Source of the DNA: Pseudomonadota bacterium | GTDB lineage: Bacteria > Pseudomonadota > Gammaproteobacteria > Burkholderiales > Burkholderiaceae_C | Direction of reading: 5' to 3' | DNA length: 49,593 nucleotides | Assembly: GCA_018241325.1 (NCBI GenBank) | Contig: JAFEEB010000044.1 | Coordinates: 20,626 to 70,218 of the forward strand | Part shown: positions 8,529-45,182 of the stretch, in pieces | Position numbering within the stretch: the first letter of the stretch is position 1 | Layout: each line of letters begins with the position of its first letter | Notes under the pieces: generated by a model | What the model was told of the DNA's origin: nothing | Databases searched by the model: none | The model's input: the letters and a program-made list of their open reading frames with translations, nothing else | Position numbers and translations under genes: made by a program

Positions 8529-9050
8529 ATGAAATACACAGGCATTCCCGTTCGTCGTTGGGGCTTGGCGGCCATGCTCGCCGCGGCACTGGGGGCCGCC
8601 GGCTGCGACCCGCAAGCCATCAAGGAGCTGGAAGAAGGCGTGGCCACCGAGGCCGACGTGGTGCAGCGCTTCGGCCAGCCCGAGCGCGTGTGGCCCGAGG
8701 CCGGCGGCGCCAAGACCTACGAATACAACCGCCAGCCCGAAGGCCTGCGCAACTACATGATCACCATCGGCGCCGACGGCAAGATGAGCGCGCTGCGCCA
8801 GGTGCTCACCCCCCAGAACTTCGCGCGCGTACACGCCGGCATGGGCGTGGAGGACGTGCGACGCATGCTGGGCAAGCCGGCCAGACAGGTGCCCCACGCG
8901 CTGAAAAACGAAACCGTCTGGACCTGGAAGTTCCTGGAGCCGCCCAGCGACAAGAAGGCCTTCAACGTGTACTTCGGCCCCGACATGCGGGTGCAGCGCA
9001 CCGAGATCGGCGCGGACCCGGACGGGGCGGACATGCGCGGCGGGGGCTGA
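8529..9050 (+). CDS. BamE/SmpA-like outer-membrane lipoprotein
   Basis: 173 aa. An N-terminal signal (residues about 9-25) ends in A-A-G-C with C26 as probable lipidation site. The rest resembles the small BamE/OmlA fold twice over: T-E-A-D-V-V-Q-R-F-G-Q-P, then V-E-D-V-R-R-M-L-G-K-P with W-T-W-K-F. This suggests a duplicated SmpA/OmlA-type domain rather than BamE itself. ATG 8529 gives a clean signal peptide. The last 60 bases (8991-9050) recur at 11221-11280 with about 82 percent identity. It converges with the opine-dehydrogenase-like gene. Confidence 0.8.
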   Translation: MKYTGIPVRRWGLAAMLAAALGAAGCDPQAIKELEEGVATEADVVQRFGQPERVWPEAGGAKTYEYNRQPEGLRNYMITIGADGKMSALRQVLTPQNFARVHAGMGVEDVRRMLGKPARQVPHALKNETVWTWKFLEPPSDKKAFNVYFGPDMRVQRTEIGADPDGADMRGGG

Positions 9051-11220: not shown

Positions 11221-11280
11221 GTGCGGCGCACCGAGATCGGCACGAACCCGGATGGGCCGGATGGACGAGGCGGCGGCTGA
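11221..11280 (+). pseudogene. 60-base duplicate of the 3' end of the BamE-like lipoprotein gene
   Basis: Aligned without gaps to 8991-9050, this segment differs at 11 of 60 positions (about 82 percent identity) and ends at the same in-frame TGA. It would encode V-R-R-T-E-I-G-T-N-P-D-G, like V-Q-R-T-E-I-G-A-D-P-D-G in the intact gene. Similarity stops abruptly upstream, so only the tail survives. Best read as the remnant of a deleted paralogue between the Bug gene and the PagL-type gene. Confidence 0.6.
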
Positions 11281-26784: not shown

Positions 26785-26859
26785 TGGCGCCCCCGGCAGG
26801 AATCGAACCTGCATCTGGCGCTTAGGAGGCGCCCGTTCTATCCATTGAACTACGGCGGC
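26785..26859 (-). tRNA. tRNA-Arg (anticodon CCT)
   Basis: 75 bases with encoded CCA (TGG at 26785-26787). D stem GTTC/GAAC; anticodon stem GGCGC/GCGCC with loop CTCCTAA, so the anticodon is CCT (decodes AGG); T arm GCAGG-TTCGATT-CCTGC; discriminator G. The acceptor arms are GCCGCCG and CGGGGGC, which leaves a G4-G69 mismatch where GCCCCCG would pair fully. The remaining structure is complete. Confidence 0.95.
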
Positions 26860-37373: not shown

Positions 37374-37420
37374 GGGTCTTCCAAGTTCAATCACGTGGCC
37401 TGCGGATCGGTGGCCTCGAC

Positions 37421-37551
37421 ATCCCAAGGGCCAAAAGGCCGCGGAGCAGGCCATGCCAAGGCACCCTTGGTCGGGGTTTCCCCGATCAATGGGTGCGCCA
37501 CCTCGCAGGGGGGAGGCGCAACATCGCGCAGCGAGTGGAGCCTGGGGGTGG
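37421..37551 (-). repeat. Stop-codon-linked structured repeat, copy 1 (downstream of moxR)
   Basis: Begins next to the moxR stop (TGA at 37554-37552) and runs downstream in moxR sense. It shares CTCC(A)CTCGCTGCGCGATGTT and CCTGCTCCGCGG blocks with copies 2 and 3. A 36-nt hairpin at 37461-37496 has outer arms GCACCC/GGGTGC, inner arm TTGATCGGGG facing CCCCGACCAA, loop AAA, a bulged A and one A-C mismatch. Confidence 0.8.
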
Positions 37552-38394
37552 TCATCTGTTGCGCTGGTTCATGAAAACCAGCTTCTCGAACAGGCTCGTG
37601 TCCTGCTCGTTCTTCAAGAGCGCGCCCACCAGTGGCGGCACGGACACCTTGTCGTCCTTGCTGTGCAGCGCCTCGGCCGGGATGTCCTCGGCCACCAGCA
37701 GCTTCAGCCAGTCCAGCAGCTCGCTGGTGGATGGCTTTTTCTTCAGGCCGGGCAGGCCGCGCACGTCGAAGAACACCTTCATGGCGGCGCTGAGCAAGTC
37801 TTTTTTCAGATCCGGGAAGTGGACATGGACGATCTGCTTCATCGTCTCCGGCTCGGGGAACTTGATGTAGTGAAAAAAGCAGCGGCGCAAAAAGGCATCG
37901 GGCAGCTCTTTTTCGTTGTTGGAGGTGATGAAGACCACGGGGCGGTGCCGCGCCTTGATGGTCTCGCGCGTCTCGTAGCAGTGGAACTCCATGCGGTCGA
38001 GCTCGCGCAGCAGGTCGTTGGGAAACTCGATGTCGGCCTTGTCGATTTCGTCGATCAGCAAGGCCACCGGCTCGTCGGCGGTGAAGGCCTGCCACAGCAC
38101 GCCCTTGACGATGTAGTTGTGGATGTCCTTGACGCGGTCGTCGCCCAGCTGGCTGTCGCGCAGGCGGCTGACGGCGTCGTATTCGTACAGGCCCTGCTGC
38201 GCCTTGGTGGTGCTCTTGATGTGCCATTGCAGCAGCGGCAGCTTGAGCGCGCCGGCCACTTCCTCGGCCAGCATGGTCTTGCCGGTGCCCGGCTCGCCCT
38301 TGACCAGCAGCGGGCGCTTGAGCGTGATGGATGCATTGACGGCCAGCATCAGGTCTTGCGTGGCGACGTAGGAATCGGTGCCTTGGAATTTCAT
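37552..38394 (-). CDS. MoxR-family AAA ATPase
   Basis: 280 aa. Walker A G-E-P-G-T-G-K-T near residue 40, Walker B A-L-L-I-D-E-I-D-K, sensor V-F-I-T-S-N-N-E-K-E-L, arginine-finger region L-R-R-C-F-F-H-Y-I. MoxR ATPases act as chaperones with VWA proteins, here presumably the CoxE-like gene at 34811-35998. ATG 38394 is chosen over one five codons earlier because M-K-F-Q-G-T matches the family start. Its stop is followed directly by repeat copy 1. Confidence 0.92.
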   Translation of the reverse strand: MKFQGTDSYVATQDLMLAVNASITLKRPLLVKGEPGTGKTMLAEEVAGALKLPLLQWHIKSTTKAQQGLYEYDAVSRLRDSQLGDDRVKDIHNYIVKGVLWQAFTADEPVALLIDEIDKADIEFPNDLLRELDRMEFHCYETRETIKARHRPVVFITSNNEKELPDAFLRRCFFHYIKFPEPETMKQIVHVHFPDLKKDLLSAAMKVFFDVRGLPGLKKKPSTSELLDWLKLLVAEDIPAEALHSKDDKVSVPPLVGALLKNEQDTSLFEKLVFMNQRNR

Positions 38395-38440
38395 GTCGGG
38401 TGGGGCCAATGAACCAGGGATGGACTAGGGAAAATGAGGC

Positions 38441-38469
38441 TTCGGGACGCTGCGGCGCTTGATTACAAT
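38441..38469 (+). promoter_or_regulatory. Candidate promoter for the cytochrome c4 gene
   Basis: TTCGGG (38441-38446) and TACAAT (38464-38469), spacer 17, 44 bases ahead of the ATG at 38514. The -10 is good; the -35 matches only partly. Confidence 0.4.
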
Positions 38470-38513
38470 CGGCTGCTGATCTGAATCAAACAACCTTGGA
38501 TTGTGCGCGCAAA

Positions 38514-39179
38514 ATGAAACTGATCCTGTCTCCGATGTTCGTTGCACTCAGCCTCGCCGCCGGCCTGGCCACGTCTGCCCAGGCCCAGGTCAAGGGCAAC
38601 ATCGAGGCGGGTGAAGGCAAGGTGGCCATGTGCATCGGCTGCCACGGCATCATGGACTACAAGACCAACTTCCCCGAGGTCTACCACGTCCCCAAGATCG
38701 CCGGCCAGAACGCCAAGTACATCGAGACGGTGCTGGGCGAATACAAAAAGGGCACGCGCAAGCACCCCAGCATGCGCGGCATCGCCGGCTCGCTGACCGA
38801 GCAGGACATCGCCGACGTGGCCGCCTACTACACCGCCCTGGGCGAGATCAAGGGCGCGCCCGAGCTGCCGGCCCCGCGCGCGGCCAGCGCCGACGTGACG
38901 GCGCTGCTGCAAAAGGGCGCCTGCGTGTCCTGCCACGGCGACAACTTCAGCAAGCCGATCGACCCGAGCTACCCCAAGATCGCCGGCCAGTATCCCGACT
39001 ACCTGTTTGCCGCACTCAAGGCCTACAAGGACGACACGCACGCCACCTGGGGCCGCGGCAACCCGGTCATGGCCGGCATGGCCAAGCAGTTCTCCAACGC
39101 CGAGCTCAAGGCCATCGCCTACTACATCGGCTCGCTGCCCGGCGAGGTGCGCACGGTGCCGCAGGGGCGCTTTCGCTGA
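38514..39179 (+). CDS. Dihaem cytochrome c4 family protein
   Basis: 221 aa. Signal peptide residues 1-24 (S-A-Q-A cleavage), so periplasmic. Two haem c sites, C40-x-x-C43-H44 and C137-x-x-C140-H141, in two similar halves with K-I-A-G-Q repeated after each haem and Met ligands likely in S-M-R-G-I and V-M-A-G-M. Cytochromes c4 pass electrons to terminal oxidases. ATG 38514; an in-frame ATG 18 bases upstream lacks a better ribosome site. It is followed by a strong terminator. Confidence 0.93.
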   Translation: MKLILSPMFVALSLAAGLATSAQAQVKGNIEAGEGKVAMCIGCHGIMDYKTNFPEVYHVPKIAGQNAKYIETVLGEYKKGTRKHPSMRGIAGSLTEQDIADVAAYYTALGEIKGAPELPAPRAASADVTALLQKGACVSCHGDNFSKPIDPSYPKIAGQYPDYLFAALKAYKDDTHATWGRGNPVMAGMAKQFSNAELKAIAYYIGSLPGEVRTVPQGRFR

Positions 39180-39199
39180 GGGGCCCAGTCCCCGGCTTC

Positions 39200-39229
39200 A
39201 AAAAAGCCCGCCGCCGGCGGGTTTTTTTT
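39200..39229. terminator. Bidirectional rho-independent terminator
   Basis: Stem CCCGCC (39207-39212) / GGCGGG (39216-39221) with three-base loop GCC, flanked by A6 on the left and T8 on the right. It lies between the convergent cytochrome c4 and DUF1841 genes, so it can stop both. Confidence 0.92.
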
Positions 39230-39269
39230 GTGGGCAAATGCGGCGTAGGCGCTTGATATAAAGGCGCGG

Positions 39270-39285
39270 GCAGCTATCAAAATGA
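39270..39285 (+). repeat. AGCTAT-family short repeat
   Basis: GCAGCTATCAAAATGA just past the end of the DUF1841 gene; matches 20703-20720 almost base for base. Confidence 0.4.
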
Positions 39286-39295
39286 GAGTAACCAG

Positions 39296-39730
39296 TCAAT
39301 CCCGGGTGGCCCGCCGGCGCACGCAGTCCAGGTAGGCCGCGCCGTCGGGCTGGCTCTGCCTGGCCTGCGCATCGGCCAGCATCTGGCCCAGGCACTGCAT
39401 CACCTCGTGGTGCGCGGCGTGCAGATCGCCCCGGCGCGCGGCCAGCAGCTCCACCGCCTGGCGAATGCCGGCGGGCTGGTCGATGCTGCACTGCTCGCTG
39501 ATCGACAGGTGCATGGACAGGTGCAAAAACGGGTTGCCGCCCACCGCGCCCTCGCCGTACTGGCGCGCCACCGCCGCGTCCGCGTCGGCCAGCTCGGCAT
39601 GCCACTCGGGGTGCTCGGCCACCCAGCCGGCGGCCAGTTGCTCGATGGCCTGCATGGGCTGCTCGGCCTGCGACTTGGCCCAGGCCTCGCAAAAAAACCG
39701 GCGCACTTGTTCTTGGGTGGGGGTGAACAT
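39296..39730 (-). CDS. DUF1841 family protein
   Basis: 144 aa, soluble, no signal. Family blocks: Q-V-R-R-F-F-C-E-A-W near the start, then G-G-N-P-F-L-H-L-S-M-H-L-S-I-S-E-Q and H-E-V-M-Q-C-L-G later. Found mainly in Beta- and Gammaproteobacteria; function unknown. It is divergent from the thiolase gene with a 103-base gap. Confidence 0.88.
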   Translation of the reverse strand: MFTPTQEQVRRFFCEAWAKSQAEQPMQAIEQLAAGWVAEHPEWHAELADADAAVARQYGEGAVGGNPFLHLSMHLSISEQCSIDQPAGIRQAVELLAARRGDLHAAHHEVMQCLGQMLADAQARQSQPDGAAYLDCVRRRATRD

Positions 39731-39833
39731 GATGCGAGGAGGGTAGCACGCAGGGCTGCCGGCGGCGGCGCAGCGTTCGATCGCATAACATCATGGCCGC
39801 TGACGCCAGAACCCCTTGATTCGGAGACTTTTC

Positions 39834-41036
<1,203 letters not shown>

Positions 41037-41111
41037 CGGATCGTGGCAGGGCGCTATTTTATTGATAGTGCTCTGCGCTGACTGCGCGCGGGCTGCGGCC
41101 GGATTCGATGA

Positions 41112-42974
41112 TCAAATCCGCTCGACCGGATCGGTCGGCGGGATGGCGGGCAGCTCATTGGCCGCCAGCGCGTGCGCGGCCTGCTCGCGCTCCTTGGCGA
41201 GTTGCTCCTCAAACTGCATGCGCCCGCGCACCACCACCGAGATCAGCTTGGCGCGGTCCTTGTAGTAGGGGTGCATCTCTTCGAACAACGCCAGGTTGTG
41301 GCGGCGAAAGCGGTCGGCGCTGAAGCGCGCCACCTCGGCGCTGGCGCCCAGCAGCTCCAGCACGCGGCGGCCGCTCACCAGGCTGGACTCGAACAGCTCG
41401 CGCTCCACGCGCATCACGCCGCGGTCGCGCAGCTGGTTCCAGTGCGTGACGTCGCGCGCGCGCGCCACCAGCTCCAGCTGGGGAAAGTGCTGGCGCACCA
41501 GATCGACGATGGCCAGCGACTGCTCCACGTCGTCCACCGCCAGCACCAGAATCTGCGCCTCGGCGGCGCCGGCGGTGCGCAGCAGGTCCAGCCGCGTGGC
41601 ATCGCCGTAAAAGACGCGCGAGCCGAACGCGCGCGCGGCCTCGACCATCTCGGCGTCGTGGTCCAGCACCGTCACCGCCACGCCCTCGGCGCTGAGCAGG
41701 CGGCCGACGATCTGGCCGTAGCGGCCAAAGCCGGCAATGATGACCGGGGCGTTCTGCGGCTCGGACAGCTCGGGCGGGGCCGGCGGGCGGCCGCAGTCGG
41801 CGTAGCGCGGCAGCAGCCAGCGGTCCACGGCGACCAGGGCCAGCGGTGTCAGCAGCATCGACAGCGCCACGGCGCCGATCAGCAGCGAGGCCGTGGCGGC
41901 CGGCAGCGCGTTGGCGTCCGCCGCGGCGCGAAACACGACAAAGGCGAATTCGCCGCCCTGCGCCAGCAGCAGCGTGAACACCGGCCGCTCCTGCATCGGC
42001 AGCTTCAGCAGCCGCGCCAGCGCGCCGATGACCAGCACCTTCAAGGCCAGGAACCCGAGTACCAAAGCGGCCATCGTCCCCGGTGAGGCCAGCAGCACCC
42101 CGAAGTCGATGCTCATGCCGACGGCGACGAAAAACAGGCCCATCAACAGGCCCTTGAAGGGCTCGATGTCGGTCTCCAGCTCGCGCCGATATTCGCTTTC
42201 GGCCAGCAGCACGCCGGCCAGAAAGGCGCCCAACGCCATCGACAGGCCCACCCACTGCATCAGGCTGGCGATGCCCACCACCACCAGCAGCGCAGCCGCG
42301 GTGAACAGCTCGGTCGAGCCGCTGCGCGCGATCCAGCGCAGCGCCGGGCGCAGCAGCAGGCGCCCGCCGAAGACGATGGCGGCGATCGCGGCCAGCGTCT
42401 TCAGCGCTTCCAGCCAGCGCGTGCCGGCCGGGCTGGCCTCGTGCAGTCCGCTGGCCAGCGCCAGCAGCGGCAGCAGGGCCAGGATGGGAATGGCCGCCAC
42501 GTCCTGAAACAGCAAGATCGAAAAGCCCGCCTGCCCGGTGGAGGTGCGCATCAGGTTGCGCTCGCCCATCACCTGCAGCGCGATCGCCGTGCTGGACAGC
42601 GCCAGGCCCAAGCCCGCCACCACGGCGATGCGCCAGGCCACGCCCAGCATCAGCGCGACGGCGGTGATCGCCAGCGCGCAGGCCAGCACCTGCACGCTGC
42701 CCCAGCCGAAAATGGGCCGGCGCAGGCTCCACAGGCGCCGCGGCTCCAGCTCGAGGCCGACCAGAAACAGCATCAGCACCACGCCGAATTCGGCGAAGTG
42801 CAGGATGTCCTGCACGTTGCTGACCAGGCCAAGGCCCCAGGGCCCGATGGCGATGCCCGCCACCAGGAAGCCGATGATGGCGCCCAGCCCGAGCGCGCGC
42901 GAGAGCGTGACCGCCAGCACCGAGGCCGCCAGGTAGATGAAGCTGTTGACGAGCCAGGGTGGGGCGTGTTCCAT
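41112..42974 (-). CDS. Kef-type (CPA2) cation/proton antiporter with RCK domain
   Basis: 620 aa. About 12 membrane helices over residues 5-385 (Na/H exchanger fold, with L-G-A-I-I-G-F-L-V-A-G-I-A-I-G-P early), then a cytoplasmic Rossmann RCK/TrkA-N domain (G-F-G-R-Y-G-Q-I-V-G, L-D-H-D-A-E, G-D-A-T-R-L-D-L-L) and a charged tail. KefB/KefC of E. coli are glutathione-gated K+ efflux systems; no KefF/KefG partner is present. ATG 42974 is chosen; the longer frame (to 43022) runs into the structured repeat. Confidence 0.9.
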   Translation of the reverse strand: MEHAPPWLVNSFIYLAASVLAVTLSRALGLGAIIGFLVAGIAIGPWGLGLVSNVQDILHFAEFGVVLMLFLVGLELEPRRLWSLRRPIFGWGSVQVLACALAITAVALMLGVAWRIAVVAGLGLALSSTAIALQVMGERNLMRTSTGQAGFSILLFQDVAAIPILALLPLLALASGLHEASPAGTRWLEALKTLAAIAAIVFGGRLLLRPALRWIARSGSTELFTAAALLVVVGIASLMQWVGLSMALGAFLAGVLLAESEYRRELETDIEPFKGLLMGLFFVAVGMSIDFGVLLASPGTMAALVLGFLALKVLVIGALARLLKLPMQERPVFTLLLAQGGEFAFVVFRAAADANALPAATASLLIGAVALSMLLTPLALVAVDRWLLPRYADCGRPPAPPELSEPQNAPVIIAGFGRYGQIVGRLLSAEGVAVTVLDHDAEMVEAARAFGSRVFYGDATRLDLLRTAGAAEAQILVLAVDDVEQSLAIVDLVRQHFPQLELVARARDVTHWNQLRDRGVMRVERELFESSLVSGRRVLELLGASAEVARFSADRFRRHNLALFEEMHPYYKDRAKLISVVVRGRMQFEEQLAKEREQAAHALAANELPAIPPTDPVERI

Positions 42975-42983
42975 GTCAGTGGT

Positions 42984-43153
42984 CCATGGCGCTGCGCGCC
43001 ACCCGCAGCGCATGAAGTCCAAAGAACCGAAGGACCGCGGAGCAGGTCAGCCAAGGGCGCCCGTGGCCGGGGTCTCCCCGGTCACTGGGCGCGCGTCCTG
43101 CAAGGGCGAAGGCGAAACATCGCGCAGCGAGTGGAGACTGGGGGTGTTTCATT
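42984..43153 (-). repeat. Stop-codon-linked structured repeat, copy 2 (downstream of the TRIC-family gene)
   Basis: Starts beside the stop of the TRIC-family gene (TGA 43156-43154) and fills the whole gap to the Kef start. Hairpin at 43057-43092: outer arms GCGCCC/GGGCGC, inner GTGACCGGGG with CCCCGGCCAC, loop AGA, bulged A and A-C mismatch. The distal end (GCTGCGGGTG, then GCGCAGCGCCATGG) aligns with the end of copy 3. Confidence 0.8.
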
Positions 43154-43804
43154 TCACCGCCGCCAGCCGGGCACCGCCCAGCCGCGGTCCACCGACAGCA
43201 GCCGCCCGCCGGCGGTGACCACCACGGTCACCGTCAGGATCAGCCAGGGCGCCAGGCCCAGTGCCTGCAAGCCCACGAACAGCCAGCCGCCGGCAAACGA
43301 CCACAGCGCGTAGGGCCGGTGGTCGTTCAGTGCCCGCGGGATCTCGTTGCACAGCACGTCGCGCAGCACGCCGCCGAACACGCTGGTGACCACGCCCATC
43401 AGGACGGCCACCAGCGGGGGCTCGCCGACGGCCAGCGCCAGGTCCACCCCCACGGCGGTGAACAGGCCCAGGCCCAGCGCGTCGGGCCAGAGGATGGCGC
43501 GCTCGGTGGGCGCCAGGTGGCGCTGGCGCATGAACAGCACGGCGGCCACGCACAGGCCCAGCAGCGCCCACAAAAATTCCACGTGCCGCACCCAGAAGAA
43601 GGGCCGCTGGTCCAGCAGCAGGTCGCGCAGCGTGCCGCCGCCAAAGGCCGTGGCAAAGGCCACCACGCACACGCCCACGGCGTCCAGCCGCTTGCGCGCC
43701 GCTTCGATCACGCCCGACAGCGCAAAGGCCAGCGTGGCGGCCCACTCCAGCGTCATGCGCAGCTTGTCGCCCCAGAACGGGGGCAGGGGTTGCATCAGTT
43801 CCAT
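43154..43804 (-). CDS. TRIC/UPF0126 family membrane protein
   Basis: 216 aa with seven hydrophobic segments in two similar halves, each carrying the glycine-rich motif G-G-G-T-L-R-D and G-G-V-L-R-D-V-L of PF03458. Bacterial TRIC proteins form trimeric cation channels; older annotations call them UPF0126 or glycine transporters. The ATG at 43804 gives the family start. The gap to parA contains an A/T-rich AGCTA/TAGCT sequence. Confidence 0.9.
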   Translation of the reverse strand: MELMQPLPPFWGDKLRMTLEWAATLAFALSGVIEAARKRLDAVGVCVVAFATAFGGGTLRDLLLDQRPFFWVRHVEFLWALLGLCVAAVLFMRQRHLAPTERAILWPDALGLGLFTAVGVDLALAVGEPPLVAVLMGVVTSVFGGVLRDVLCNEIPRALNDHRPYALWSFAGGWLFVGLQALGLAPWLILTVTVVVTAGGRLLSVDRGWAVPGWRR

Positions 43805-43832
43805 GGCGTGTGGCGGGTTTGGGTGGGCGGAG

Positions 43833-43856
43833 GCAGCTACATTTTATATAGCTGGC
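43833..43856. repeat. A/T-rich AGCTA/TAGCT inverted sequence
   Basis: GCAGCTACATTTTATATAGC: AGCTA and TAGCT face each other around an A/T core in the divergent gap between the TRIC-family gene and parA. Related to the AGCTAT family and may also supply a promoter (TATATA). Confidence 0.35.
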
Positions 43857-43905
43857 TACCATGGCGTCGATCCATTGCACAAACAAGCGTCGAGGAGGTC
43901 CGAAC

Positions 43906-44532
43906 ATGCCGGTGGTCGTCATCGCCAATCCCAAGGGCGGCGTGGGCAAGTCCACGCTGGCCACCCACGTGGCCGGCTACTGGGCCAGCCGCGGCCACGC
44001 CGTGATGCTGGGCGACGTGGACCGGCAGCAGTCGGCCCGCCTGTGGCTGGGCCTGCGCCCCGCGGCGGCCCGCCCCATCACCGCCTGGGACGTGCAGCGC
44101 GACTTCATTGTGCGCCCGCCCAGGGGCACCACGCACGTGGTGCTGGACACCCCCGCCGGCCTGCGCGGCCTGCAACTGAAGGACGCGCTGCGCTTGGCCG
44201 ACCGCGTGCTGGTGCCGCTGCAACCCAGCATCTTCGACATCTACGCCACGCGCGAATTCATCGACGAGCTGCGCGAGCTCAAGGGCGCTGCCCCGCAGCG
44301 CATCGGCCTGGTGGGCATGCGCGTGGACGAGCGCACGCTGGCGGCCGAGCAGCTGCGCCAGTTCACGCACGATCTGGGCCTGCCGGTGCTGGCGCAGCTG
44401 CGGCCCACGCAGAACTACGTGCACCTGGCCGCGCGCGGCCTGACCTTGTTCGACGTGGCGCCGGGCCGCGTGCAGCGCGACCTGGAGCAGTGGCAGGGCC
44501 TGTGCCGCTGGCTCGATCAGTCGCCTGCATGA
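43906..44532 (+). CDS. Orphan ParA-family ATPase
   Basis: 208 aa, the short ParA/MinD-like form. Deviant Walker A K10-G-G-V-G-K-S-T17 preceded by N-P; D-V-D-R-Q-Q-S-A after it; Walker B-like V-V-L-D-T-P-A-G. There is no parB or parS nearby, so a role in chromosome partition is not supported; such orphans often position other complexes. A strong GAGGAGG ribosome site (43892-43898) precedes the ATG. Confidence 0.9.
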   Translation: MPVVVIANPKGGVGKSTLATHVAGYWASRGHAVMLGDVDRQQSARLWLGLRPAAARPITAWDVQRDFIVRPPRGTTHVVLDTPAGLRGLQLKDALRLADRVLVPLQPSIFDIYATREFIDELRELKGAAPQRIGLVGMRVDERTLAAEQLRQFTHDLGLPVLAQLRPTQNYVHLAARGLTLFDVAPGRVQRDLEQWQGLCRWLDQSPA

Positions 44533-44555
44533 CTCGCGCCGGCGAGCGCTGCCGC

Positions 44556-44561
44556 TAAATT
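44556..44561 (+). promoter_or_regulatory. Possible -10 box six bases ahead of the MaoC start
   Basis: TAAATT ends six bases before the ATG at 44568 and no ribosome site is visible, so the transcript could be leaderless. The -35 region is not convincing. Confidence 0.28.
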
Positions 44562-44567
44562 GCCCCC

Positions 44568-45020
44568 ATGAAAACCTTCGACACCCTCGCCCAGCTGGTC
44601 GCCTGCGTCGGCCAGGAAGTGGCCGTGAGCGACTGGCACACGGTGACCCAGGCGCACGTCAACCAGTTTGCCGACGCCACGGGCGACCACCAGTGGATCC
44701 ACGTGGACGTGGACCGCGCCGCGGCCGGGCCCTTCGGCGCGCCCATCGCGCACGGCTTTCTCACGCTGTCGCTGGTGGCGGGTTTTTCGCAGCGCACCCT
44801 GAAGGTGGGCGACGTGCGCATGGGCGTCAACTACGGCCTGAACAAGGTGCGCTTCATGGCGCCCGTCCCCGTCGGCAGCCGCCTGCGCTCGCGCATGACG
44901 CTGCTGGAGGCCACGCCCGTCGAGGGCGGCCAGCAGCTGGTCTGGAAGAACACGATCGAGCGCGAGGGCAGTGAAAAGCCCGTGTGCGTGGCCGAGTCGG
45001 TGGCGCGCTATTACACATGA
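44568..45020 (+). CDS. MaoC-family dehydratase (R-specific enoyl-CoA hydratase type)
   Basis: 150 aa, single hot-dog domain. Hydratase-2 motif: D40 and H45 in A-T-G-D-H-Q-W-I-H, then G-P-F-G-A-P-I-A-H-G-F-L-T-L-S-L. Likely hydrates 2-enoyl-CoA to (R)-3-hydroxyacyl-CoA or a related thioester; the physiological substrate is unknown. The stop TGA at 45018-45020 is followed at once by repeat copy 3. Confidence 0.9.
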   Translation: MKTFDTLAQLVACVGQEVAVSDWHTVTQAHVNQFADATGDHQWIHVDVDRAAAGPFGAPIAHGFLTLSLVAGFSQRTLKVGDVRMGVNYGLNKVRFMAPVPVGSRLRSRMTLLEATPVEGGQQLVWKNTIEREGSEKPVCVAESVARYYT

Positions 45021-45182
45021 ACCCCCCGGTCTCCACCCGCTGCGCGATGTTCCGCCCACCCCCCAAGGGGCATCGCCAGTGACCGGGGAGACCCCGGCCA
45101 CGGCGATCGCTGACATGGCCTGCTTCGCAGCCCTTCGGCTCTTTGGGGGTTTTACGCTCTGCGGGTGACGTGCAGCGCCATG
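45021..45182 (+). repeat. Stop-codon-linked structured repeat, copy 3 (downstream of maoC, into trmL)
   Basis: Begins at the base after the MaoC stop, in the same sense. Hairpin at 45072-45107: outer arms ATCGCC/GGCGAT, inner GTGACCGGGG with CCCCGGCCAC, loop AGA, bulged A and A-C mismatch. The distal end (45155-45182) overlaps the 3' end of the opposing trmL gene and aligns with copy 2. Confidence 0.8.

What the first reader, a model, noticed from the sequence alone, without database searches (positions are those of the whole stretch)
37421..45182. Three-copy structured repeat beginning at gene stop codons, with covarying hairpin arms
Copies at 37421-37551, 42984-43153 and 45021-45182 start within a few bases of the stops of moxR, the TRIC-family gene and maoC, always in the sense of the gene they follow. 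All share a CTCGCTGCGCGATGTT-like block, a 36-nt hairpin and a CCTGCTCCGCGG-like block. In the hairpin the outer arms are GCACCC/GGGTGC, GCGCCC/GGGCGC and ATCGCC/GGCGAT: the sequence changes but pairing is kept at all six positions. Inner pairs also switch (T-A to C-G, T-A to G-C), while a bulged A and an A-C mismatch are invariant. A second small hairpin follows (GGCC/GGCC in copy 1, AGCC/GGCT in copy 3). This points to selection on an RNA structure acting in 3' UTRs: 3'-end formation, message stability or protein binding. A mobile intergenic repeat carried by an unseen enzyme is the alternative.
Basis: partly seen in the sequence, partly recalled or inferred. Interest (0 to 1): 0.8.

Follow-up and report, generated by a model that had tools for sequence, protein, structure and literature searches.

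The report
Mobile hairpin repeat behind stop codons
The three copies belong to a family of about 165-base DNA repeats, more than a hundred in this genome, that sit directly behind the ends of genes and appear to have spread by inserting there, most likely as a larger relative of a known but unexplained bacterial repeat.

Summary
Confirmed and far larger than reported. The three copies belong to a ~165-nt element with 134 model hits in the 81 stretches examined of this genome, probably an Ottowia species. In 101 of 119 placeable clusters it begins within 8 nt of the stop of a same-sense gene; random placement in the same gaps gives 23 of 118 against 100 observed. Hairpin covariation is real across 109 copies: 253 two-sided changes against 75 in shuffles. 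But G-U and A-C cells are equally common (53 vs 63), unlike tRNA (9 vs 0), so selection on a sense-strand RNA is not shown. In a same-genus relative the stops of 20 compared genes sit at the same codon or within two, and 18 of these 20 sites lack the element. One empty site is an overlapping ATGA that own carries on both sides of the insert. Best reading: a non-autonomous mobile palindromic repeat inserting at stop or stop/start junctions, MIRU-like in targeting and probably the long form of the BRE family. The moving enzyme is unknown; Y1/RAYT presence does not track the repeat. A new variant of a known kind.

The parts
37389..37551 (-). Copy 1 of the repeat, starting directly behind the moxR stop
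   Evidence: CM hit 37389-37554, 139 bits; sequence; empty orthologous site in relative G025
42975..43153 (-). Copy 2, from the TRIC-family stop to the start codon of the KefB-like gene
   Evidence: CM hit 42985-43150, 181 bits; sequence; ends TGAAATGAAACACC ... ACTGACATG
45021..45182 (+). Copy 3, starting directly behind the maoC stop; its 3' end overlaps the 3' end of the convergent trmL-like gene
   Evidence: CM hit 45017-45182, 156 bits; sequence; empty site in G025
37461..37496 (-). Central 36-nt hairpin of copy 1
   Evidence: Arms read; helices 3 and 4
43057..43092 (-). Central 36-nt hairpin of copy 2
   Evidence: Arms read; helices 3 and 4
45072..45107 (+). Central 36-nt hairpin of copy 3
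   Evidence: Arms read; helices 3 and 4
   Evidence: Gene call; DNA of the last codons ends in the same residues and stop in relatives without the repeat
43154..43804 (-).
   Evidence: Gene call
   Evidence: Gene call; same last residues and stop position in G025

Best explanation
The feature is a non-autonomous mobile DNA repeat of about 165 nt made of palindromic modules. It spreads within genomes of the family by inserting, in one orientation, at the 3' boundary of genes: at stop codons, preferring DTGA (ATGA, GTGA, TTGA), including overlapping or near-adjacent stop/start junctions inside operons. Its 5' end (TGAnATGA) and 3' end (CTGAnATG) restore a stop codon for the gene in front and, in operons, a start codon for the gene behind, so insertion does little harm. 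The arms stay paired because the hairpins matter as single-stranded or extruded DNA for movement, or because replication repairs imperfect palindromes. Shown: copy number, position, orientation, empty sites, unchanged native stops, two-sided pair changes, modular variants. Inferred: that it moves as a unit, the role of the hairpins, and an enzyme acting from elsewhere (not identified).
For: 134 hits in 120 clusters, 14 clusters with two tandem copies. 110 of 119 clusters lie in the sense of the upstream gene, 101 within 8 nt of its stop, 37 at exactly +3 and 22 at exactly -2. Random placement in the same gaps: 23.4 of 118 expected, 100 observed; for gaps of 60 nt or more 2.4 of 53 expected, 41 observed. 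Of 24 upstream genes sought in relative G025, 20 were found and read; the stop is at the same codon in 14 and within two codons in all 20; 18 of the 20 sites have no repeat behind the stop, one has one, one has an antisense copy (checked with both models). At one site the empty allele is an ATGA overlap and own has ATGA on both sides. The base before TGA is non-C in 73 of 87 element stops against 191 of 354 other TGA stops, p 1.8e-7. Same position in five other genera: 29 of 30 hits follow a same-sense stop, within 16 nt. Long copies carry whole extra hairpin modules, and own and G025 differ by one module at a shared site. Balanced G-U and A-C cells.
Against: No enzyme found: Y1/RAYT presence does not track the repeat. 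No constant target-site duplication: the variable base of TGAnATG matches between the two ends in 8 of 21 copies against 6.1 expected. A plain DTGA target does not explain why intergenic non-stop TGAs are so rarely hit, and 15 of 102 element stops are TAA or TAG. The DTGA preference is weaker elsewhere: C precedes TGA in 8 of 20 element stops of G025 and 5 of 20 in other genera, against 61 of 104 and 16 of 42 other genes. Of 18 clusters not within 8 nt of a same-sense stop, 11 stay unexplained, nine of them with an upstream gene in the opposite sense. In the more distant family f4 only 4 of 8 loci lie near a same-sense stop. Movement was not observed; emptiness rests mainly on one relative at 73-94% identity in the compared gene ends, and in 3 of 19 sites checked the DNA behind the gene is not colinear nearby, so loss or rearrangement in that relative is possible for some sites.
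Confidence: 0.6

Rival explanations
1. A functional 3' UTR RNA: the sense-strand hairpins set mRNA 3' ends, protect the message or bind a protein, and copies persist because they must sit right behind the stop codon.
For: Sense orientation and tight spacing to stops; strong two-sided pair changes; same position in other genera with the core structure kept. REPs within 15 nt of a stop lower translation in E. coli, as cited in PMC12306157 (passages).
Against: G-U 53 against A-C 63 cells, while nine tRNAs give 9 against 0. 18 of 20 sites empty in a relative. Element identity at six shared sites 0.56-0.86 while upstream genes are 0.79-0.93 identical (the 0.56 pair has a run of N in one copy, and coding DNA is not a neutral yardstick). 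17 clusters have the next start codon 10 nt behind the model end, so they are not general terminators; at one site a native terminator-like hairpin is still there behind the element.
Confidence: 0.2
2. A REP-like element moved by a RAYT (Y1 transposase) encoded elsewhere in the genome.
For: Palindromic, short, high copy, near gene ends; own genome has one Y1 domain match at C39:6184-6513. GTAG REPs often supply the stop codon to flanking ORFs (PMC3733652, passage).
Against: G017 (99% complete, 43 hits) has no Y1 match; G001, G009, G013 and G026 have Y1 matches and no repeat hit. The only element hit listed on the own Y1 gene's contig lies about 13 kb away (capped list). The REP tag GTAG is not part of the consensus.
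Confidence: 0.08
3. Random insertion plus selection: copies insert anywhere, and only those exactly at gene ends survive, with no targeting.
For: Would explain exact placement inside overlapping operon junctions, where only duplication of ATGA is harmless.
Against: In gaps of at least 60 nt, where many harmless positions should exist, 41 of 53 still abut the upstream stop against 2.4 expected; among convergent gene pairs 17 of 19 against 7.8. The best-scoring copies show the same pattern as the worst: 35 of 40 against 29 of 36.
Confidence: 0.1

Closest known systems
BRE, Beta-proteobacterial repeat element (Hot et al. 2011, PMC3110155)
   Same: Short G+C-rich repeat of Bordetella and Comamonadaceae, usually intergenic, some overlapping ORF ends by a few bases, tandem copies, no known function (one section read). 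In its Table 3 none of the 13 loci lies between divergent genes, as a gene-end rule would predict. A superfamily model built here also matches three genomes of another family of the order, eight read loci being 84-98 nt long.
   Different: BRE is about 90 bp; the window form is about 165 nt with extra 5' and 3' blocks and optional hairpin modules. Some BREs lie wholly inside coding sequences. In the section and passages read stop codons and covariation are not discussed. No named BRE sequence could be compared.
MIRU, mycobacterial interspersed repetitive unit (Supply et al. 1997)
   Same: Described as mobile and inserting at start codons so that an ORF in the MIRU couples to the gene at -4 nt, with little effect on it (review PMC12548453, passage); the DTGA target is recalled, not read.
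   Different: Window family is palindromic with covarying arms, mostly at stops without a coupled start, also between convergent genes, and shows no codon-like substitution pattern.
REP/BIME elements and RAYT
   Same: High-copy palindromes near gene ends; termini of GTAG REPs often supply stop codons (PMC3733652 passage).
   Different: Several times longer than the 20-40 bp given for REPs (abstract in listing), one orientation, no RAYT association in 29 genomes.
Bor-1 stem-loop family of Bordetella (PMC2267715)
   Same: Intergenic, structured, 93 or 117 long, 128 or 196 members by species (passages).
   Different: Relationship not testable here; sequence not held.

Membership tests
BRE | Homologous core sequence and structure | tested here: inconclusive
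   Model R2 finds the core in the window's family and in three genomes of family f4, sizes as for BRE, but f4 is unnamed and no deposited BRE was compared
BRE | About 75-91 bp full length | tested here: not met
   Hit lengths in the own genome peak at 165-167 nt (64 of the 134 lengths listed are 164-168 or nearby); f4 hits are shorter
BRE | Mostly intergenic, scattered, sometimes tandem | tested here: met
   120 clusters, 14 with two copies, 1 overlapping a called gene by more than 80 nt
BRE | Found in Comamonadaceae | tested here: met
   Loci with the closest TRIC genes carry Ottowia, Comamonadaceae and Burkholderiales titles; hits in five other genera of the window's family
MIRU | Insertion at stop/start junctions (DTGA) | tested here: inconclusive
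   DTGA enriched in own and one ATGA duplication, but a downstream start is not required
MIRU | Internal ORF coupled to flanking genes | tested here: not met
   Frame from the 5' ATG or GTG is open for 53 or more codons in most of 76 copies but so is another frame, and codon third positions are not more variable in 36 ungapped copies
MIRU | Mycobacterial sequence family | not tested
   No MIRU sequence was compared
REP/RAYT | Dependence on a RAYT in the genome | tested here: not met
   No Y1 domain match in G017, which has 43 hits
Rfam RNA family | Match to a known RNA family | tested here: not met
   Only a tRNA in the window at gathering score; in seven element loci at E up to 1 only tRNA-Sec and a miRNA hit far below its gathering score

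The most novel reading that the evidence does not exclude
The insertion system recognises translation termination itself, not a DNA word: copies lie behind TGA, TAA and TAG in roughly the proportions of all genes (87/8/7 of 102 at the element against 354/45/49 of 448 other genes; other genera 20/4/5 against 42/7/7), exactly at the native stop and in sense. That would need a translation- or mRNA-coupled insertion route, for instance through an RNA intermediate joined at the stop codon.
Probability: 0.1. Interest if true: 0.88.

Novelty: new variant of a known kind. Interest (0 to 1): 0.58.

Why it matters
Short palindromic repeats fill many bacterial genomes, and how they choose their sites is mostly unknown. 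This family gives an unusually clean case: more than a hundred copies in one genome, most with one end at a stop codon and in one orientation, with empty sites in a relative. It shows that pair-preserving changes in such repeats need not mean an RNA function, and uses a simple strand test (G-U against A-C) to separate the two. It also gives a position rule that can be tested on BRE, whose authors left the function open in 2011, and suggests that site choice resembling that of MIRUs exists in a distant phylum.

Tried and rejected
Three-copy local feature: rejected, family-wide. Known RNA family: none at the sensitivity used. Element-encoded peptide: a frame is open in most copies, but another frame is too, and substitution shows no third-position excess. 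Simple duplication of TGAnATG: ends not matched. TGA as strict target: not supported. RAYT: no association. Plasmid or phage carriage: no match of copy 2 in either collection. Named genomes: only 4 of 80 loci have an R1 hit at E up to 0.1; in the seven closest read, what follows the TRIC gene is unrelated to the window, so these were not used as empty sites. First gene caller called shadow frames and was replaced. Integron attC was considered from memory and dropped: copies follow ordinary genes whose relatives keep their place without the element. Literature: seven searches turned up BRE, Bor-1, REP and a MIRU review, and nothing seen in their listings describes this stop-codon rule; one search returned nothing. 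Papers seen: PMC3110155 one section and passages; PMC12548453, PMC12306157, PMC3733652 and PMC2267715 passages only; Supply 1997 not read.
Full report
OBSERVATION. The three copies are real. A blastn search of the window's genome (3.82 Mb, 93 contigs) with copy 2 gave 55 hits, 40 candidates scored. A covariance model (R1, 167 positions, 27 copies) gave 145 hits with 150 of 6267 candidates scored, so a lower bound. I fetched 80 stretches around hits; the model finds 134 hits at E up to 0.001 in these plus the window, 120 clusters after merging tandem copies. Some weaker hits were not in the fetched stretches.

ANATOMY. A young copy reads TGAnATGAAACACCCCCAGTCTCC, a CGCTGCGCG block, a CCCCC/GGGGG hairpin, the 36-nt hairpin, a GGCC/GGCC hairpin, and a GCGCTGCG-type hairpin ending ATGGATAACTGAnATG. 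Twenty-one of 134 hits are longer than 185 nt (194-254) and carry extra hairpin modules of two or three kinds. At one site shared with relative G025 the two genomes differ by one such module.

POSITION. Genes were called with a home-made codon-usage caller seeded with window genes; no public annotation was available. Of 120 clusters one overlaps a called gene by more than 80 nt. Of the other 119, the upstream neighbour is in the same sense in 110; the layouts are 90 tandem sense, 19 convergent, 6 tandem antisense, 3 divergent, 1 without a downstream gene. 101 of 119 start within 8 nt of the upstream stop, 37 at +3 and 22 at -2 relative to the model start. Random position and strand in the same gaps predicts 23.4 of 118, observed 100, maximum 37 in 20,000 draws; for gaps of at least 60 nt 2.4 of 53 against 41. 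Of the 18 exceptions, three follow a degenerate or long copy (L135, L128:9362, L189), one (L172) follows the end of a selenocysteine tRNA gene, three are at -11, -14 and +18, and 11 stay unexplained: nine with the upstream gene in the opposite sense and two at 72 and 626 nt. In G025 23 of 24 hits have the upstream gene in the same sense, 22 of them within 12 nt of its stop (the other follows the tRNA gene); in five other genera 29 of 30, all 29 within 16 nt. For the broader model R2, 15 of 18 loci of the window's family and 4 of 8 of family f4 lie between -35 and +20 of a same-sense stop; the f4 exceptions include two at 193 and 280 nt and two with an opposite gene.

EMPTY SITES. In G025 the moxR and maoC stops are followed directly by other sequence. 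For 24 further single copies the last 170 nt of the upstream gene were sought in G025; 20 were found and read, four had no match. The stop is at the same codon in 14 and within two codons in all 20; 18 sites have no repeat, one has a repeat (L121/L292), one an antisense copy (L134:7220/L276). Both models confirm this: the only hits beside a stop are L292 and L276; two other strong hits lie 650 nt or more away. So genes are not cut short: the element sits at native stops. In 16 of 19 sites the DNA behind is colinear within 250 nt. At L146/L281 the empty site is an ATGA overlap of two genes; own has ATGA on both sides of the element and the second gene starts in the second ATGA. In the other direction 6 of 24 G025 copies have an own copy behind the same gene. 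Their elements are 0.56-0.86 identical, against 0.79-0.93 for the upstream genes, lower in each of the six; one pair is of different subfamilies (the lowest value includes a run of N). Other relatives carry divergent elements at the moxR stop (L203) and the maoC stop (L206), and behind the gene convergent to TRIC (L200). Turnover looks high, and the same gene ends are hit more than once.

TARGET. The base before TGA is A, G or T in 73 of 87 element stops against 191 of 354 other TGA stops (p 1.8e-7); in the +3 class, where the stop is not part of the ATGAAAC end, 28 of 35. In G025 it is 12 of 20 against 43 of 104, in other genera 15 of 20 against 26 of 42. TGA is not significantly enriched among element stops (87 of 102 against 354 of 448, p 0.17); other genera show 20 TGA, 5 TAG, 4 TAA. 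Three of the 20 G025 stops are TAA where own has TGA, and one own TAA faces a G025 TGA, so the element end may replace the stop. Older copies may have changed their stop by mutation, so a DTGA-like preference at insertion is possible. The variable base in TGAnATG does not agree between the ends (8 of 21, expected 6.1), which speaks against a simple 7-nt duplication.

STRUCTURE. On a structure-blind alignment of 109 copies (own, G025, other genera; A6) 91.8% of 2991 cells form a standard pair, 253 cells have changes on both sides (75 in shuffles; 35 to 55 with partners slid), score 0.232 (0.092; 0.03 to 0.08). These sequences are related, so cells are not independent events, and I chose the pairs by eye from this family. 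Sense-strand RNA selection should tolerate G-U and not A-C. Observed are 53 G-U and 63 A-C cells; without helix 2, which holds a column out of register, 37 and 32. Nine tRNAs from the loci in hand give 9 and 0. Pairing is therefore kept symmetrically on both strands, as for a DNA hairpin or palindrome. Replication-linked repair of imperfect palindromes (recalled) could give this without selection.

RANGE. Of 60 genomes 27 have R1 hits: own, 21 of 28 same-genus relatives, 5 of 7 from other genera of the family, 0 of 24 from other families of the order; 47 candidates were scored per genome. The seven relatives without hits have genomes of 2.0-3.1 Mb, but six with hits are no larger than 3.1 Mb. 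With R2, 9 of 250 genomes of the order match at E 0.001: six of the window's family (own included) and three of family f4. The f4 loci read are 84-98 nt, and G131 has two same-strand pairs close together; size and tandem habit fit BRE, but f4 is unnamed. Plasmid and phage collections gave no match. The genus is probably Ottowia: loci with the closest TRIC genes carry Ottowia titles, and one same-genus contig (G018:C152, 18,058 nt) has the length of an Ottowia contig in that list.

MECHANISM. I commit to a non-autonomous mobile palindromic repeat with insertion at gene 3' boundaries. Shown: copy number, position, orientation, empty sites, intact native stops, modular variation, two-sided pair changes. 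Inferred: transfer as a unit, an enzyme in trans, and a role of the hairpins as single-stranded DNA. The ends fit a harm-avoiding design: TGAnATGA gives stop codons in two frames, and CTGAnATG leaves a start for the next gene in the 17 clusters with a start codon 10 nt behind the model end. MIRUs are described as inserting at start codons with coupling at -4 nt (PMC12548453 passage); here a coupled start is often absent. A Y1/RAYT enzyme is not associated: G017 has 43 hits and no Y1 match, four genomes have Y1 and no repeat. Why non-stop TGAs in wide gaps are avoided is unexplained and is the main open point.

VERDICT. Observation confirmed and enlarged; interpretation partly supported. A new variant of a known kind (BRE-like beta-proteobacterial repeats), with a striking and testable position rule.

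Noticed in passing
45152-45182: The last residues of the trmL-like protein (after GFAG) are encoded antisense in copy 3; in G025 the DNA reads into a short different tail, so the insertion replaced the C-terminus.
   Followed up: partly
43154-43804: G025 lacks the TRIC gene at this place: the start of its KefB-like gene lies directly beside the ParA-like gene, so gene and copy 2 may have arrived together or been lost together.
   Followed up: partly
L172:2090-2355: A copy follows the CCA end of a selenocysteine tRNA gene in own and in G025 (L272), the one clear non-coding case.
   Followed up: partly
G014 (e.g. L211): One same-genus genome has 20 Y1-domain matches, several with the same score, which suggests an IS200-like family unrelated to repeat number.
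   Followed up: no
L126:6787-7031, L163:2041-2288, L182:2344-2584: Optional hairpin modules of about 75-85 nt inside long copies, e.g. one with the near-perfect palindrome ACAAAAGGTCCGGTGGACCTTTTGT.
   Followed up: partly
L155:2175, L157:2457, L179:1982: Three of the exceptional copies begin 1-8 nt from the start of a gene in the opposite sense, so the 5' end still abuts a coding boundary.
   Followed up: no
26788-26859: Single tRNA gene of the window, tRNA-Arg(CCT) by ARAGORN.
   Followed up: no
8991-9050 and 11221-11280: Two 60-nt stretches 82% identical, probably related C-termini.
   Followed up: no
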